Under the pieces are notes generated by a model, which ran no database searches, was not told the origin of the DNA, and worked only from the letters and a program-made list of their open reading frames with translations. From Methylococcales bacterium (lineage in GTDB: Bacteria > Pseudomonadota > Gammaproteobacteria > Methylococcales > Methylomonadaceae), in assembly GCA_026399075.1 (NCBI GenBank), contig JAPLRR010000083.1:62001-126000 (forward strand): a DNA stretch of 64,000 bases, written 5' to 3'. Positions 41,997 to 64,000 of this stretch are shown here, piece by piece. The position numbers and the translations under genes are program-made. How positions within the stretch are numbered: position 1 is the stretch's first letter; each line of letters opens with the position of its first letter.

Positions 41997-42311
41997 CTAA
42001 GCGCTAGGCGTGTTCAGATTTGCGAATTTGCACATTTCTTCTTTTGTCGTGTCATCCACGTTTTCCCAGATTGTATTTTCTGTTATCACCAATTGACAGC
42101 CATATTCATCGCTTGCCGCAGTGATGATTTGCTTAAACCACTGTATATGTGACCACTCCTGAGGAACAGATGAGTACAGGAACTTCCCATTTAAATCCCA
42201 CTGCACAGCCATTGCCGCACGATAGATATGGGTAAAGTCCGCCTTCTCAGGCGTGATGCAGACGCGGTTTTTTGCATCAATGCGGATCAGGACAATTTTG
42301 TCTGACTTCAT
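41997..42311 (-). CDS. Hypothetical small protein
   Basis: The 104-residue product begins MKSDKIVLIRIDAKNRVCI and reads as a compact alpha/beta protein with aromatic residues (VQWDLNGKFLYSS, HIQWFKQII). No motif or family is recognised. It stands next to the Doc toxin locus on the same strand, in a region of low gene density, which fits an accessory cassette. Confidence 0.5.
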   Translation of the reverse strand: MKSDKIVLIRIDAKNRVCITPEKADFTHIYRAAMAVQWDLNGKFLYSSVPQEWSHIQWFKQIITAASDEYGCQLVITENTIWENVDDTTKEEMCKFANLNTPSA

Positions 42312-42409
42312 AATGCTATTGGTTTAGGTAATTCTTTCAGTTGACACGAGTAGCAACTTATAGGGTACAGCGGAAAGTAAGTGGGAATTGACAAAATTCG
42401 CCTGCGTCT

Positions 42410-42802
42410 TCAAATAGTAGTGCGAATTATTGAATGTTTGCGTAGCCACTGGGCAAAATTTGTTTCCTGCATTTTTCCGCTGGCAACAGCTAATACAGTT
42501 TGTGTTGCGTCGGTTTGGGTGGCGGTCAATTTGTAGCCATTCAGACCTAAAAACAAACCGACTGCCAAAAATGCGACCCGTTTATTGCCATCCACAAAGG
42601 CATGGTTTTTCGCTAATCCTATTGCATACGCCGCCGCTAAGTCGGCAAAATCTGGCTCACTATACAAGGCTAAGTTCAGTGGACGATCCAATGCTGAATC
42701 TAATAAACCTTCATCCCGAATACCTGACGCGCCACCGTGTAGAAGTAAACTTTCATCATGCAGCATCACTAACAATTGCTTATCAATCCACTGCCACTTC
42801 AT
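42410..42802 (-). CDS. doc: Death-on-curing (Doc/Fic) family toxin
   Basis: The 130-residue protein has the Fic core motif HAFVDGNKR near residue 66, matching HxFx(D/E)GNKR, plus the Doc N-terminal pattern LLHGGASGIRDEGLLDSALDRP. Doc phosphorylates elongation factor Tu; other Fic proteins transfer AMP. It follows its likely antitoxin gene by two bases, the usual antitoxin-first order. Confidence 0.88.
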   Translation of the reverse strand: MKWQWIDKQLLVMLHDESLLLHGGASGIRDEGLLDSALDRPLNLALYSEPDFADLAAAYAIGLAKNHAFVDGNKRVAFLAVGLFLGLNGYKLTATQTDATQTVLAVASGKMQETNFAQWLRKHSIIRTTI

Positions 42803-54762: not shown

Positions 54763-55107
54763 ATGAAGCAAGTGACTGAATTAGAATGGAATGAAGCATG
54801 GTCTACGTCTGGATATTTAATACAACTTTGTCAGCTTCCCTATTCCGTAAAGGAAATAGAAAGCCTATTTTCTCTTTCATCTTTTGAATATACTGAGGAT
54901 GGATTGGGAACTTGTTTCGGTATTTATATTTCGATTGAAGACCAGTTGTGTTTTTTACTTGGTTTTCATGACAAAGAAGATAAAACCCATTCTGTATTGG
55001 TTCAAGTAAAGAATTTTGAAAGTAACTTGCCTAGCTTGTTAAATAAACTCTGTCAAGAATTTAAAGTAAACGAAAACTCTCTAATCTGGGTAAATTTAGA
55101 CTTGTAG
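54763..55107 (+). CDS. Hypothetical small protein
   Basis: The 114-residue acidic product (TELEWNEAWSTSGYLIQL; SVKEIESLFSLSSFEYTEDG; ending LIWVNLDL) has no recognised family. Base composition is clearly AT-richer than its neighbours, suggesting recent arrival. Its size and acidity would suit an immunity or antitoxin protein, but nothing in the sequence proves that. It follows the TPR gene and the MITE-like element. Confidence 0.5.
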   Translation: MKQVTELEWNEAWSTSGYLIQLCQLPYSVKEIESLFSLSSFEYTEDGLGTCFGIYISIEDQLCFLLGFHDKEDKTHSVLVQVKNFESNLPSLLNKLCQEFKVNENSLIWVNLDL

Positions 55108-59675: not shown

Positions 59676-60860
59676 ATGATGATACGCGCTATTCAAATTG
59701 AAGGTTTTAAATCCATTGTCTCCCAAACTGTGGAATTAGGGCGGATAAATTGTTTTATTGGCGCAAATGGCGTAGGAAAAAGCAATGTTTTGGAGGCCAT
59801 TGGTGTGCTTGGTGCTGCCGCTAGTGGCAAGGTAGATGATGAGTCCTTAAAAAGACGTGGTGTGCGTGAAGGCATGCCGCGCTTATATAAGGCATCTTTT
59901 GAAGGTATCCGCGTATCTGGGCAAATTAGATTGATTGCAAAGGGGGACGCGGGAGAAGAGTTTCGCGTTTCGTTGTTGAATCCTTTGGAACACCCCAATC
60001 CCGCTTGGTCTTTCAAAACTGAATATTTGTTTGATGGAAATAAATCCGTTGTTTCGCGTGGTGTCCGTACTGAGAAAAATAATTTGGCAAACACAGCTGG
60101 CCTTTCTGCATTGAAAGTCGTGGAGCTTGAGCCGGACAACGCCGCTGCACAATTACTTACGCGGCTGCAAAACTACGCAATATATTGTCCTGACACCCCA
60201 ACCTTACGTGGCACAATACAAGACCCCCAAACCCGTGATCCTTTGGGCTTGTCAGGTGGACGATTAGCCGAAGGTTTTGCTGAATTTCGTAAGTATCTGC
60301 TTAATAAAGACGAAGGCTTGCTAGACAGTGTTCTTGAGCTAATTGATTGGGTAGCCGATATAGACACTTCGGATAATGTTCGCAAGCTACTATCGCCATC
60401 TGTGTCGCGTAGCAAATATGTACTTCGCTTTACTGACCGCTATATGAAAAAAAGCCGTAATACCTTAACGGCGTATGATGCTAGTGAAGGTGCTTTATAT
60501 GTGTTGTTTTGTGCAATGTTATGCCTTTCGCCCAATGCACCTAAATTACTGGCTGTGGATAATCTGGATCAAGCTTTAAATCCGCGTTTAGTTATGCGCT
60601 TAAGCGCCAAACTGTCAACGTGGTTACAGCAAGCCGATTCCGAACGGCAACTGCTGTTTACAGCCCATAACCCCGCTGTGTTGGATGGCTTGGACTTAAC
60701 CGATGATGAAGTGCGCTTGTTCGCCGTTGAACGGAGCAGTAAAGGCCACACACTTATTAAGAGAGTTATGCTAAGCCCAGAACTGTTGGAACTTAATAAC
60801 GACTACCCACTTTCACGCTTATGGTTGATGGGGCATTTGGGGGCTGTGCCGAATGTCTGA
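59676..60860 (+). CDS. AAA (RecF/OLD-like) ATPase of an ATPase/TOPRIM pair
   Basis: The 394-residue protein starts MIRAIQIEGFKSI, the typical beta start of SMC/RecF/OLD ATPases, with Walker A GANGVGKS (residues 29-36). The C-terminal half has a signature-like ASEGALYVL, then Walker B KLLAVDNLDQALNP in which the usual catalytic Asp-Glu reads Asp-Asn, and a switch His in TAHNPAVLDGLDL. It has no internal TOPRIM. Its stop overlaps the next gene by eight bases, so the two are coupled. Plausible anti-phage sensor ATPase; that role is inference. Confidence 0.75.
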   Translation: MMIRAIQIEGFKSIVSQTVELGRINCFIGANGVGKSNVLEAIGVLGAAASGKVDDESLKRRGVREGMPRLYKASFEGIRVSGQIRLIAKGDAGEEFRVSLLNPLEHPNPAWSFKTEYLFDGNKSVVSRGVRTEKNNLANTAGLSALKVVELEPDNAAAQLLTRLQNYAIYCPDTPTLRGTIQDPQTRDPLGLSGGRLAEGFAEFRKYLLNKDEGLLDSVLELIDWVADIDTSDNVRKLLSPSVSRSKYVLRFTDRYMKKSRNTLTAYDASEGALYVLFCAMLCLSPNAPKLLAVDNLDQALNPRLVMRLSAKLSTWLQQADSERQLLFTAHNPAVLDGLDLTDDEVRLFAVERSSKGHTLIKRVMLSPELLELNNDYPLSRLWLMGHLGAVPNV

Positions 60861-61545
60861 TCTGCACATAGCATTGGTGGCAGAAGGAGTAACGGATTTA
60901 ATTATTATTGAGGCTGCGTTACAAGCGGTTTTGCCGGCTGATTTTGTGTTGACGCTATTGCAACCAGAACCCACAAGGCCTGAAATGGGCGGCGGTTGGG
61001 GAGGGGTGTTTAAGTGGTGTAGGGATTTTGAAAGCCGTGGCCATCCTACATTGGAAGCAGATCCAACCCTAGGTCTATTTGACTTGTTTATTATCCATCT
61101 TGATGCCGATGTTGCCCATAAGGCTTACACGGATTGTGGGGCGTCAGCTGTAAATGCAGCTATGGGATTACCTGCACTACCTTGTGATTTGCCGTGCCCA
61201 CCGTCTGTTGATACGGTAAAGCCACTTAGTGACGCAATGCTTGCTTGGTTGGGGATCTCACAACCCGGTCAGAAAACTATTTTTTGCATTCCTTCAAAGG
61301 CCAGTGAAGCTTGGCTTGCGGCAGCGATTTTACCGGATGGGCATCCGCTATTGAATAATCTTGAGTGCAATTTGAGATTAGAACAAGATTTATCCCTGTT
61401 ACCCAAGCCGTTGCGTGTTAAAAAAAGCAAACGGGAATATCAGGTTCATGCGCTAACAATTTCAAGTCAATGGGCAAAGGTTTGCAATTTATGCCCACAA
61501 GCAGACGTTTTTCAACAAGCATTAACCCAAGGTCATGGTGTTTAG
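60853..61545 (+). CDS. TOPRIM-like (DUF4276-like) partner protein
   Basis: The 230-residue product begins with a strand and VAEGVTDLIIIEAAL, the Glu-x-x-Thr-Asp loop of TOPRIM folds. It has IIHLDADVA (the Asp-x-Asp metal pair) near residue 80 and IFCIPSKASEAWLAAAIL around residue 145, matching the third acidic site of DUF4276-type proteins. TOPRIM enzymes cleave nucleic acid. Translational coupling to the AAA ATPase upstream points to an ATPase-gated nuclease. No membrane or DNA-binding module is visible. Confidence 0.6.
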   Translation: MSDLHIALVAEGVTDLIIIEAALQAVLPADFVLTLLQPEPTRPEMGGGWGGVFKWCRDFESRGHPTLEADPTLGLFDLFIIHLDADVAHKAYTDCGASAVNAAMGLPALPCDLPCPPSVDTVKPLSDAMLAWLGISQPGQKTIFCIPSKASEAWLAAAILPDGHPLLNNLECNLRLEQDLSLLPKPLRVKKSKREYQVHALTISSQWAKVCNLCPQADVFQQALTQGHGV

Positions 61546-61670: not shown

Positions 61671-64000
61671 TTATGCCTCCACACTTTTGCTTATCGATTT
61701 CTTACGACGGCGTAAGCGTGGCACGAACAAGGCCGCCAATCCGAACATCCCCAACAAGCCAGGTTCTGGCACAGTGGCGAAGCTGTCCAGTGACCCCAAA
61801 TTAATCAACAAATTACTGCCCGTACCGCTGGCACCGCCGCCACTAAAAAAGTTTTCGGTGAAGCTTGGATCGGACAAATCAAGGGTAAATCCACCAAAGC
61901 TACAAACATGGGTGCTGGTGCTTACACAATTGGCGGGTGGGTCACCAAACAGGAAGTCAAACCCGAAACTTTGGCCAACGGTGTCTAAATTGAGTGACAA
62001 AGCAACTGTCAGATTAAACAAGCTTTGGTTAGGCCCGAATTTGAAACCGCTTATCGAAAGGCTGGAGCCTGCGCCTGCTTGTCCAGAATGCTGGTAAAAC
62101 CCAATCGCCAGATTGTCAGTAATAAGGCTGGAATCAACGATAAAGCTGACAAAACTATTGTAATTTTCAACTACCCCGCCGCCTGGGCCACCATAATAAC
62201 CACCCAATGCACCAGCCCCAAAGATAATGGCACCAGGTTGCCCCAGCACGGCATTTATCGGGTTGCTGACGTTTAATCCTTGGGGATACAAGGCGCTAGT
62301 TACCCACGATGTCGATGGTGTGCCTGTGACAAACGCGTATGAGTTGTTTTGGCTGCCATCAAGGCTTACCGTAGAGCCAAAATTGGCCGTGCTTTTGGTT
62401 TTTGCCGTGCCGTTGTCCACGGGTGCTGTGGCCTGTGCAAATACGCTGGCCACGCTGTTTTGTTTGCTGGAACTGGCTTTGCTGGTCGCACTACCAGTGC
62501 CGCCTGTCGCGGTGGCCGTGGCTGTTGCTTGTTGGCCATTGGCGGTGGAGGCCAGTGCATCTGCCACACCAGCTGCCCGGTTGATAGCCCCTAATCCGCC
62601 AGTGGCCGTTGCCGTGGCCGTGGCAGTTTTATTGGCGGCGGTGCTGGTTTCCCCGCCCCAGGCAATCGCGGTGGCGGCGCCACCGGTAGCACCACTACCT
62701 CCTGTGGCGTTTACCGTTGTTTGGGTTGAGCCGCCGCTATTGCTGACATTGGTTTTAGTCCACGCATCACCGCCGTTGCCGTTGCTGGAACCCGCACCAG
62801 AGCCTGTGCCGCCCGCCCCACCGGTTGCGCTGGTGGATGCGTTCAAACTGCTGGAGTTTGCCGAGTAATTTAATTGGCTGTTGACCAAGCCACCTAGGCC
62901 GCCAGCCGCATTGGCGCTATTGCCGCCTTTGCCGCCAATCGCATTTTGGGTCAGGCTTAAGGCACCGCTAGTGCTACCTGAAACATTGCCTGAGACAATT
63001 TGTGTTGCTGCCCCCGCGCCGCCCGCTGCGCCATTTTGTCCATCACCACCAGCCCCGCCAGTGCTATCCGTCCTGACGCTAACATCAGCCCCGCCAGTAG
63101 AGACGCCAGTGGCGACCGCAGTCGCGATTGCACCATCACCACCCGAGTTGCCAGCTCCCCGGCCAGTACCGCCATTACCGCCGTAAACAGCGGCGGCGCT
63201 GTAGATAGTTCCAAGATTAGTGCTATTGGTACCTGATGATTGGCCAGTCGCCCAACCACCATCGCCACCATTTCCCGTTCCGGAAATAGAACCGCCGAAA
63301 CCACCATGGGATTCGACCGTAGAGGTGACGCCTTTAACCCCTGTCGCCAAGCTTTGTGCGGCAGTATTGCCGCCAGTACCGGCTATGCCGTCGATGGTGG
63401 AGCCGCCGCCGCCATAAGCGCTGCCGAAACGGTAATTTCCCCAGGCCGTTGAGGTGACGCTGCCAGCACCAGTGACTATATTTTGCGCCAAGCTATAGGC
63501 GCCATCGCCTGCGGCCCCATGGTCGCTCTGGCCACCGTAGCCCGCTTGGGTGATGGAGGTGACGGTGAGCGAACTGGCAGCCGGGTCATTGACACTTTGT
63601 AGGCTGCGGGCCTCCCCAGCAGTACCACCTGAACCGGTGCCAGTCCCGTTAGCTGAACCGCCGCTGCCGCCACCGGCCACTTGGAATAAGGCCAAGCTGC
63701 CGCTGCTTGTGCCTTGTGCTGAATTAAACAGCTGGCTATCGGCACCCGCACCGCCATTGGCACCATTGAAACCGCTACCGCCCGTACCGCCATATTGGTT
63801 GACCGTGACTGTAGTTGTGCCACCGTTGTTGGAAATGCCCGTGGCATCGGCTAGGACAGTACCGCCGTCCCCACCACTTTTGCCGACACCGTTGCCACCG
63901 CCGCCATTGCCGCCCGTGGCGGTACTGGTGGCGTTCACTTGGCCACTGCCTGTGCCGGTTGTAGTGTTGTGGGCTGTGGCACTGCCGCCGTTGCTGCCGC
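61671..64000 (-). CDS. Glycine-rich PEP-CTERM protein (5' end outside window)
   Basis: The frame is open to the right edge, so the N-terminus and signal peptide are missing; at least 775 residues are seen. Most of it is low-complexity Gly/Ala/Ser/Thr with GGxGG and TGGxG units (PGRS-like), then about 200 residues of ordinary sequence with a Cys pair (NCVSTSTHVC). It ends in the exosortase signal VPEPGLLG, a hydrophobic helix and RLRRRKK. Such proteins are exported, processed by exosortase and associated with exopolysaccharide. Codon choice is G/C-rich by necessity. Confidence 0.88.
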   Translation of the reverse strand, partial: GSNGGSATAHNTTTGTGSGQVNATSTATGGNGGGGNGVGKSGGDGGTVLADATGISNNGGTTTVTVNQYGGTGGSGFNGANGGAGADSQLFNSAQGTSSGSLALFQVAGGGSGGSANGTGTGSGGTAGEARSLQSVNDPAASSLTVTSITQAGYGGQSDHGAAGDGAYSLAQNIVTGAGSVTSTAWGNYRFGSAYGGGGSTIDGIAGTGGNTAAQSLATGVKGVTSTVESHGGFGGSISGTGNGGDGGWATGQSSGTNSTNLGTIYSAAAVYGGNGGTGRGAGNSGGDGAIATAVATGVSTGGADVSVRTDSTGGAGGDGQNGAAGGAGAATQIVSGNVSGSTSGALSLTQNAIGGKGGNSANAAGGLGGLVNSQLNYSANSSSLNASTSATGGAGGTGSGAGSSNGNGGDAWTKTNVSNSGGSTQTTVNATGGSGATGGAATAIAWGGETSTAANKTATATATATGGLGAINRAAGVADALASTANGQQATATATATGGTGSATSKASSSKQNSVASVFAQATAPVDNGTAKTKSTANFGSTVSLDGSQNNSYAFVTGTPSTSWVTSALYPQGLNVSNPINAVLGQPGAIIFGAGALGGYYGGPGGGVVENYNSFVSFIVDSSLITDNLAIGFYQHSGQAGAGSSLSISGFKFGPNQSLFNLTVALSLNLDTVGQSFGFDFLFGDPPANCVSTSTHVCSFGGFTLDLSDPSFTENFFSGGGASGTGSNLLINLGSLDSFATVPEPGLLGMFGLAALFVPRLRRRKKSISKSVEA

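What the first reader, a model, noticed from the sequence alone, without database searches (positions are those of the whole stretch)
59676..61545. Overlapping AAA ATPase and TOPRIM-like gene pair: candidate split OLD/PARIS-like defence module
Seen: an SMC/RecF-type ATPase with Walker A and a switch His, and an eight-base-overlapping gene with EGxTD, DxD and a later Glu as in TOPRIM nucleases. Known: OLD, Gabija and PARIS pair these activities; in PARIS the TOPRIM partner is DUF4435 and the ATPase is separate. Here the partner looks like DUF4276, so it fits none of the three exactly. Inferred: an ATPase-gated nuclease set between lspA and a PEP-CTERM gene.
Basis: partly seen in the sequence, partly recalled or inferred. 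Interest (0 to 1): 0.75.

Follow-up and report, generated by a model that had tools for sequence, protein, structure and literature searches.

The report
Paired ATPase–nuclease phage-defence candidate
Two overlapping genes encode an ATP-binding sensor-like protein and a predicted RNA- or DNA-cutting enzyme that travel together on phages, plasmids and chromosomes; they most likely stop virus infection, and the family is already listed as an untested defence candidate.

Summary
Both genes are real: A, 59676-60860 (394 aa), and B, 60853-61545 (230 aa), overlap by 8 nt. They match PADLOC's uncharacterised candidate PDC-M31 almost end to end (A 1.5e-185, B 3.4e-94), so the pair is catalogued but, in the library I could search, untested. 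A is an OLD/SMC-type ABC head ATPase, closest in PDB to retron/Septu PtuA. B is a remote DUF4276 relative (profile-profile 96%) and keeps, in order, the OLD two-metal Toprim residues E11, D15, D84, D86, E152, K191. In all 32 pairs examined (one cut by a contig end) A stands directly before B: phage-type contigs, plasmids, genome contigs. Defence neighbours occur: CBASS, a CRISPR-like array, PD-T7-1. Among 34 congeners none has it. One trait stands out: the ABC catalytic glutamate is replaced in 26 of 26 aligned A proteins (24 Asn, 2 Ser), while 24 of 27 comparison ATPases keep Glu. Best reading: a PARIS/AbiL-like abortive-infection pair in which an ATP-bound, poorly hydrolysing A gates the B nuclease. 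Defence and substrate are inferred. No fold search of B reached E 0.001.

The parts
59676..60860 (+). Gene A: OLD/SMC-type ABC head ATPase (PDC-M31A), 394 aa
   Evidence: AAA_21 1.6e-18, SMC_N, AAA_15; PDC-M31A 1.5e-185; pLDDT 87.5, pTM 0.89; PtuA, Rad50, SMC heads
60853..61545 (+). Gene B: DUF4276-like Toprim-type nuclease (PDC-M31B), 230 aa
   Evidence: PDC-M31B 3.4e-94; pLDDT 78.5, pTM 0.81
60853..60860 (+). 8-nt stop/start overlap, suggesting translational coupling; the same 8 nt in L002, L014 and L022
59760..59783 (+). Walker A of gene A, residues 29-36
60558..60569 (+). Walker B region of A, D295-N296-L297-D298: Asn where ABC ATPases have the catalytic Glu
60883..60897 (+). B residues 11-15, EGVTD: first Toprim acid E11 and presumed metal-B acid D15
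61102..61110 (+). B residues 84-86, DAD (Toprim DxD)
61306..61314 (+). B residues 152-154, E152-A-W154 (presumed metal-B Glu of OLD/RNase M5 type)
61423..61425 (+). B K191, candidate counterpart of the catalytic Lys of OLD nucleases (K562 in BpOLD)

Best explanation
A and B are a two-gene anti-phage (abortive-infection type) module. A, an ABC head ATPase, binds ATP, dimerises, probably holds B inactive and acts as the sensor. When a phage signal changes A, B is released or activated as a two-metal Toprim nuclease that cuts host nucleic acid, most likely RNA such as tRNA by analogy with PARIS AriB and the translation block of WonAB, and so stops the cell before phage are made. Shown here: gene structure, homology, conserved active-site residues, constant pairing, mobile carriage. 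Inferred: complex formation, sensing, activation, substrate and defence.
For: Near full-length match of both to one defence candidate, and of all 17 members of each alignment to PDC-M31B or A. A has the PtuA/Rad50/SMC head fold (best E 1.8e-12, TM-scores mostly 0.4-0.6) and hits PARIS AriA, AbiLi, Menshen NsnB and HEC-01A models. B is homologous to DUF4276 over 186 columns, 96.3%, against at most 1.1% for 51 other window ORFs used as single sequences; its best predicted-structure match is an RloB-like phage protein (probability 0.99 but E 0.018, TM 0.45/0.48). The conserved charged residues coincide in order with BpOLD E400, E404, D455, D457, E508, K562 and share the E-x3-acid and D-x-D spacings (passages of PMC6755086). 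Pairing: 9 of 10 phylum matches found with B have A upstream; 15 of 15 viral contigs with a strong A have B directly behind. Co-variation of A and B distances r = 0.86, 0 of 2000 permutations. Phage context: terminase, holin, endolysin, integrase. Plasmid copies. Defence neighbours: a CBASS-type operon, a 60-nt-period CRISPR-like array starting 53 nt after B in L082, a PD-T7-1 protein 1.3 kb after B in L050 (3.3e-112). Sporadic: own genome only among 61.
Against: No experiment. B's predicted fold found no Toprim structure among the 50 PDB rows listed (best E 0.05, unrelated Rossmann-like folds), nothing in BFVD reached E 0.001, and B itself hits no Pfam family at E up to 10. With a five-sequence DUF4276 subset the match covers only B's C-terminal 103 columns. 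Most genome-contig copies and the window copy have no evident defence neighbour. Complex prediction was not possible. The Enterobacter plasmid copy has Gly at position 152. Parallel inheritance is expected of any stable operon, and the searches were seeded by each gene in turn.
Confidence: 0.72

Rival explanations
1. Toxin-antitoxin or addiction module: B is a toxin neutralised by A, kept because it stabilises phages and plasmids, with defence at most secondary.
For: Overlapping or abutting genes, and carriage on small plasmids with few other genes (5.8 kb Paracoccus, 10.3 and 12.8 kb Acinetobacter). Related AAA + TOPRIM_OLD pairs neutralise toxicity (passages of PMC10440598).
Against: In WonAB the nuclease was toxic only when the ATPase was present, so simple sequestration failed there (passages of PMC12137116). 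TA and abortive infection are not exclusive.
Confidence: 0.15
2. OLD-like DNase: B degrades or nicks phage or host DNA rather than RNA, gated by A. (A variant of the best explanation, differing in substrate.)
For: The residue set matches BpOLD, a DNase. Pfam and PADLOC link A to OLD-type ATPases.
Against: The key residues are shared with the RNases AriB and M5. The substrate of its nearest relatives (DUF4276, RloB) was not found in what I read.
Confidence: 0.25
3. Housekeeping DNA-repair or cell-cycle ATPase-nuclease, not defence.
For: Most genome-contig copies lie singly among genes that read as ordinary. An archaeal OLD protein, Cran1, acts in the cell cycle and apparently not in defence (passages of PMC12796447).
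Against: Absent from 34 of 34 congeners, rare (10 of 398 phylum genomes, one of these a false partial match), and on phage-type contigs and plasmids: not the pattern of a core gene.
Confidence: 0.05

Closest known systems
PADLOC PDC-M31 (PDC-M31A + PDC-M31B), untested candidate
   Same: Both proteins, nearly full length, best hits by far; both genes adjacent
   Different: No difference found; the missing catalytic Glu is a trait of the family as sampled here, not of this copy alone
HEC-01 / ATPase + DUF4276 pairs (three ATPase + DUF4276 pairs elsewhere in this genome)
   Same: ABC ATPase next to a DUF4276-type protein; remotely homologous
   Different: Far lower scores (A 80 against 615 bits; B 16 bits); those ATPases mostly keep the catalytic Glu
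PARIS (AriA + AriB)
   Same: Separate adjacent OLD-ABC and Toprim genes; two-metal Toprim-type residues
   Different: No DUF4435 hit; A matches an AriA model at 62.9 bits only
AbiL (AbiLi + AbiLii/RloB)
   Same: OLD-ABC + RloB/Toprim effector; A matches an AbiLi model along its length (3.6e-19); B's best viral fold match is RloB-like
   Different: RloB sequence similarity marginal (profile 2.7%, Pfam best 0.0053 in 4 of 17 members)
WonAB and PD-T4-4
   Same: OLD-ABC sensor + nuclease; WonAB acts by abortive infection
   Different: WonB is a PD-(D/E)xK nuclease, not Toprim; PD-T4-4's nuclease was modelled likewise
OLD class 1, Gabija, Septu
   Same: ABC head ATPase; OLD-type Toprim residues (OLD, GajA)
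   Different: No fusion, no GajB helicase, no HNH partner

Membership tests
PADLOC PDC-M31 | A matches PDC-M31A and B matches PDC-M31B, adjacent | tested here: met
   615 bits (profile 1-395 of 395) and 312.9 bits (1-227 of 233); genes overlap
PADLOC PDC-M31 | Anti-phage activity | not testable with these tools
   candidate only; 0 occurrences of PDC-M31 in the paper library
OLD-ABC ATPase superfamily | ABC head fold with Walker A, signature, Walker B Asp, switch His | tested here: met
OLD-ABC ATPase superfamily | Catalytic Glu after Walker B Asp | tested here: not met
   24 N, 2 S of 26; 24 E, 2 Q, 1 N of 27 comparison ATPases, so the Glu is usual but not universal
Toprim nuclease | Glu after strand 1 and DxD after strand 3 of a Rossmann-like sheet (arrangement recalled) | tested here: met
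   predicted strand 4-9 then E11; strand 78-82 then D84xD86
Toprim nuclease | Fold superposes on solved Toprim domains | tested here: inconclusive
   no match with E <= 0.001 and no Toprim among the 50 listed; RloB-like viral model, probability 0.99, E 0.018
DUF4276 (PF14103) | Pfam profile match | tested here: not met
   window B none; 4 of 17 members at E up to 1, best 4.1e-4; 3 of 12 at E up to 10, best 0.0055
DUF4276 (PF14103) | Remote homology by profile-profile comparison | tested here: met
   96.3%, E 1.6e-9, 186 columns with 16 sequences; a distant family member is annotated DUF4276 in its record
PARIS | Separate adjacent ATPase and Toprim genes | tested here: met
PARIS | Effector is DUF4435 | tested here: not met
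   DUF4435 not among the families hit; comparison with one DUF4435 sequence 0.3%, which alone is weak
AbiL | Effector is RloB (PF13707) | tested here: inconclusive
   4 of 17 members, best 0.0053; profile 2.7%; viral fold match RloB-like
Gabija | ATPase-Toprim fusion with UvrD-like GajB | tested here: not met
   two separate genes; the next gene is the long Gly-rich gene on the other strand
Class 1 OLD | Single fused protein | tested here: not met
   two ORFs here and in the 27 pairs
Septu | HNH partner PtuB | tested here: not met
   no HNH family hit by B or its relatives; conserved residues are Toprim-type

The most novel reading that the evidence does not exclude
The whole PDC-M31 family uses a naturally hydrolysis-poor ABC switch. 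With Asn in place of the catalytic Glu, A would stay ATP-engaged like laboratory E-to-Q traps, holding B in check by ATP binding alone, and would fire when a phage protein or a fall in ATP/dNTP opens the clamp. That would be a one-shot, binding-driven sensor rather than a hydrolytic cycle.
Probability: 0.3. Interest if true: 0.6.

Novelty: new member of a known kind. Interest (0 to 1): 0.42.

Why it matters
It turns a bare database candidate into a concrete, testable mechanism: named active-site residues, a likely remote family (DUF4276/RloB) for the effector, and a family-wide loss of the ABC catalytic glutamate that predicts a non-hydrolytic sensor. The effector reading would extend to other ATPase + DUF4276 pairs, three of which are elsewhere in this genome.

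Tried and rejected
Rejected: housekeeping role (sporadic, mobile); Gabija, class 1 OLD, Septu (missing parts); strict PARIS (no DUF4435). Led nowhere or weak: PDB fold search for B; Pfam and NCBIfam for the window B; PDB sequence search with B's alignment (one unrelated hit at 0.66); viral-contig scan with B alone (none); E. coli genomes with the Enterobacter pair (none); promoter and terminator scan near chance (5 against 3.7 expected, 2 against 2.7); paper searches for DUF4276 (0 papers) and for PDC-M31, HEC-01, PDC-M07 (15 papers, all by the string HEC-01, most by title on other subjects; the one on Desulfovibrio piger prophages was not opened).

Corrections and dropped rows. The first DUF4276, RloB and DUF4435 sets held wrong ORFs (ATPases picked instead); rebuilt with 16 of 17 DUF4276 loci, 6 of 10 RloB loci (L107, L110, L114 wrong ORF, L115 not used) and 1 of 2 DUF4435 loci. 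In that call DUF4276 against RloB gave 47.6%. Other dropped rows: L011 (partial match in a long ORF, no A), L013 (a partial pair), L007 (A cut by a contig end; left out of the 26-row counts). Two Acinetobacter haemolyticus plasmid hits (H9, H10) were not opened. The 27 comparison ATPases are the first ORF of 300 aa or more with a Walker A in each locus; their adjacency to the partner gene was not checked one by one.

Full report
What is there. Two ORFs on the + strand: A 59676-60860 (394 aa) and B 60853-61545 (230 aa), overlapping by 8 nt. A carries Walker A, an SEG signature, a Walker B-like strand and a switch His; B carries EGVTD, DAD and a later E-x-W. Upstream are ileS and lspA; downstream, convergent, a long Gly-rich PEP-CTERM-type gene that continues beyond the window (gene names are my reading of the sequences; a match to lspA was found in 31 of 35 genomes of the genus). 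GC at third codon positions is 0.41 (A) and 0.37 (B) against 0.57 for ileS, a weak sign of recent arrival from one comparison gene.

What it is by profile. Pfam gives A as AAA_21, SMC_N and AAA_15 and B nothing; NCBIfam gives B nothing and A only matches far below cut-off. PADLOC-DB gives A as PDC-M31A (1.5e-185, 615 bits, whole profile) and B as PDC-M31B (3.4e-94, profile 1-227 of 233); the next A model, HEC-01A, has 80 bits. All 17 rows of the A and of the B alignments built from window, genome-contig and viral-contig loci match PDC-M31A and PDC-M31B, as do all 12 rows of the first B alignment. So the pair belongs to a catalogued candidate. My searches of the paper library (open-licence PubMed Central only) listed no study of it. 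That PDC means phage defence candidate is recalled.

Gene A. AlphaFold2 from 17 sequences gives pLDDT 87.5, pTM 0.89. Foldseek against PDB finds 283 matches with E <= 0.001, led by retron Ec83 PtuA (1.8e-12), with Rad50, SMC and RecN heads, Septu PtuA and other retron ATPases among the 50 listed. The striking point is the Walker B. Over 26 aligned A proteins the residue after the Walker B Asp (the catalytic Glu of ABC ATPases; general knowledge) is Asn in 24 and Ser in 2. In 27 comparison ATPases, from loci of DUF4276, RloB or DUF4435 genes or found by A-likeness in this genome, it is Glu in 24, Gln in 2, Asn in 1. Other key residues stand: K35 26/26, E271 25/26, D295 25/26, H331 25/26. Of five further plasmid pairs, three of the four inspected read Asp-Asn and one Glu-Ser. 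Cautions: in the OLD protein Cran1, substitution of either Walker B residue left the ATPase activity intact, though growth was retarded; the same paper says GajA has likely lost hydrolysis but kept binding (passages of PMC12796447). So loss of hydrolysis in A is a prediction only.

Gene B. In 26 pairs E11, D15, P38, D84, D86 and W154 are invariant, G12 25, K191 24; position 152 is E 23, D 2, G 1. BpOLD, a class 2 OLD nuclease with two bound Mg, uses E400, E404, D455, D457, T506, E508 and K562 (passages of PMC6755086). The order and the E-x3-acid and D-x-D spacings agree, and a Glu and a Lys follow in both; T506 has no fixed counterpart (position 150 varies), and the Lys alignment is loose because of gaps around it. 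The model (pLDDT 78.5, pTM 0.81) places E11 just after the first strand, D84/D86 just after the third and E152 at the start of the helix after the fourth, the Toprim arrangement as I know it. Among 17 members Pfam gives weak matches only: DUF4276 4 (best 4.1e-4), RloB 4 (0.0053), Toprim 1 (0.0058), OLD-like Toprim 1 (0.051), and unrelated families at 0.01 and above. Profile comparison with 16 DUF4276 proteins gives 96.3%, E 1.6e-9, over 186 columns; with a five-sequence subset 94.0% but only over B's C-terminal 103 columns. 51 other window ORFs, as single sequences, gave at most 1.1%. RloB (2.7%) and one DUF4435 sequence (0.3%) did not rise above that noise by much. BFVD's best match is an RloB-like protein, probability 0.99, E 0.018, TM 0.45/0.48, with nothing at E <= 0.001. 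PDB Foldseek found no match with E <= 0.001 and only unrelated, mostly Rossmann-like proteins among the 50 listed. I take B as a Toprim-type nuclease at about 85%.

Pairing and distribution. B-seeded: phylum search 10 of 398 genomes; 9 of the 10 matches have A upstream, the tenth is a partial match in a 1105-aa frame without A. Also one Myxococcales genome contig, one Enterobacter plasmid and one phage-labelled faecal scaffold. A-seeded in IMG/VR: 23 distinct contigs over four scans; 15 have a strong A and all 15 have B directly behind, the other 8 have no B. A-seeded in plasmids: 8 records; the Enterobacter one was known, five were opened and all five have B behind A, two were not opened. Together 32 pairs were seen (window, L002, L003-L010, L014, L015, 15 viral, 5 plasmid), one of them (L007) with A cut by the contig end. 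For 27 pairs measured, A-B spacing runs from an 8-nt overlap to a 5-nt gap, with start codons partly chosen by me; the 8-nt overlap recurs in L002, L014 and L022. Distances of A and B correlate at r = 0.86 (26 pairs, 0 of 2000 permutations as high), which says they are inherited together, not that they touch. The family is sparse: in the class 2 of 369 genomes, one of them a partial copy; among 61 relatives only the window genome, 34 of them congeners; in one other family 6 of 18.

Neighbourhood. Of the 29 other lspA loci of the genus that were read, some cut by contig ends, 16 have a conserved 176-188-aa ORF on the opposite strand just downstream, which looks like AmpD (recalled), and none has the pair. 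Viral-contig copies lie near terminase large subunits (L024, L027, L028, L040, L041), holin and endolysin (L024), an antitermination protein (L041), integrases (L025, L026) and DNA methyltransferases (L023, L050); ten flanking proteins were chosen for PHROGs, ten for Pfam and ten for PADLOC, not all. Defence-type neighbours: on an F-type conjugative Enterobacter plasmid the pair lies 1.2 kb before a SAVED, ThiF, Mov34 operon, CBASS by my reading of the annotation; in genome contig L082 a CRISPR-like array (28-nt identical repeats, about 60-nt period, dozens of copies) starts 53 nt after B (no cas genes were sought); in viral contig L050 a protein 1.3 kb after B matches PD-T7-1 at 3.3e-112. Small mobilizable plasmids of 5.8, 10.3 and 12.8 kb carry the pair. 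Against this, the other genome-contig copies (L083-L088) stand among genes that read as ordinary, and seven proteins flanking L082-L086 and L088 gave PADLOC nothing except one marginal 8.9e-6.

How it probably works. Precedents: PARIS AriA sequesters AriB, a trigger releases it, and AriB, a two-metal Toprim RNase, cuts tRNAs (PMC12409363: abstract and two sections read); WonAB, an OLD-ABC with a PD-(D/E)xK nuclease, needs both genes, blocks translation and aborts infection (PMC12137116, passages); AbiL and AAA + TOPRIM_OLD pairs are placed among toxin-neutraliser systems (PMC10440598, passages); TOPRIM-linked OLD-ABC modules are described as prominent auxiliary effectors of BREX-type loci (PMC12839542, passages). 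By that logic A is sensor and gate, B effector. RNA is my favoured substrate (about 55%), DNA next (25%); neither was tested.

Relation to known systems. It works like PARIS and AbiL; by membership it is PDC-M31. It fails PARIS (DUF4435), Gabija (fusion, GajB), class 1 OLD (fusion) and Septu (HNH) on tested features. This genome carries three further ATPase + DUF4276 pairs (contigs C59, C40, C20); the C59 pair fits HEC-01 models strongly, the C40 pair weakly, and for C20 only the ATPase matches.

Verdict. Observation confirmed; interpretation largely right in kind but not new as a family. The new element is the family-wide missing catalytic glutamate together with a mapped two-metal site, which makes the mechanism testable.

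Noticed in passing
G000 C59:41309-43035 (L092, L123), C40:1402-3098 (L100, L122), C20:33236-35220 (L104, L120): Three more ABC ATPase + DUF4276 gene pairs in the same genome; C59 fits HEC-01 models strongly (ATPase 3.4e-228), C40 weakly, in C20 only the ATPase matches.
   Followed up: partly
L082:6209-11001: A CRISPR-like array of 28-nt repeats at about 60-nt period starts 53 nt after gene B in genome G077; no cas genes were sought.
   Followed up: partly
L050:3930-5105: A protein matching PADLOC PD-T7-1 (3.3e-112) lies 1.3 kb after the pair on a viral contig.
   Followed up: partly
L014:12001-12729: The Enterobacter plasmid copy of B has Gly where nearly all relatives have the presumed metal-binding Glu (position 152).
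   Followed up: partly
L013 (genome G461, near the start of contig C57): A partial copy of the pair: C-terminal piece of A and N-terminal piece of B.
   Followed up: no
61671-64000 and on into L081:1-1900 (- strand): A very long Gly-rich repetitive protein with a C-terminal PEP-CTERM-like signal (my reading), running beyond the window.
   Followed up: no
41997-42802 (- strand): A small protein that looks Doc/Fic-like (recalled) with a small neighbour gene; the former hits PADLOC candidate PDC-M59B at 6.1e-8.
   Followed up: partly
54763-55107 (+): A 114-aa ORF of 33% GC in a window of 48% GC; no PADLOC hit.
   Followed up: no
L015:483-4256: In the faecal scaffold a 1257-aa protein with HD-CE and HSP90-like ATPase domains stands just upstream of the pair; no PADLOC hit.
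   Followed up: partly
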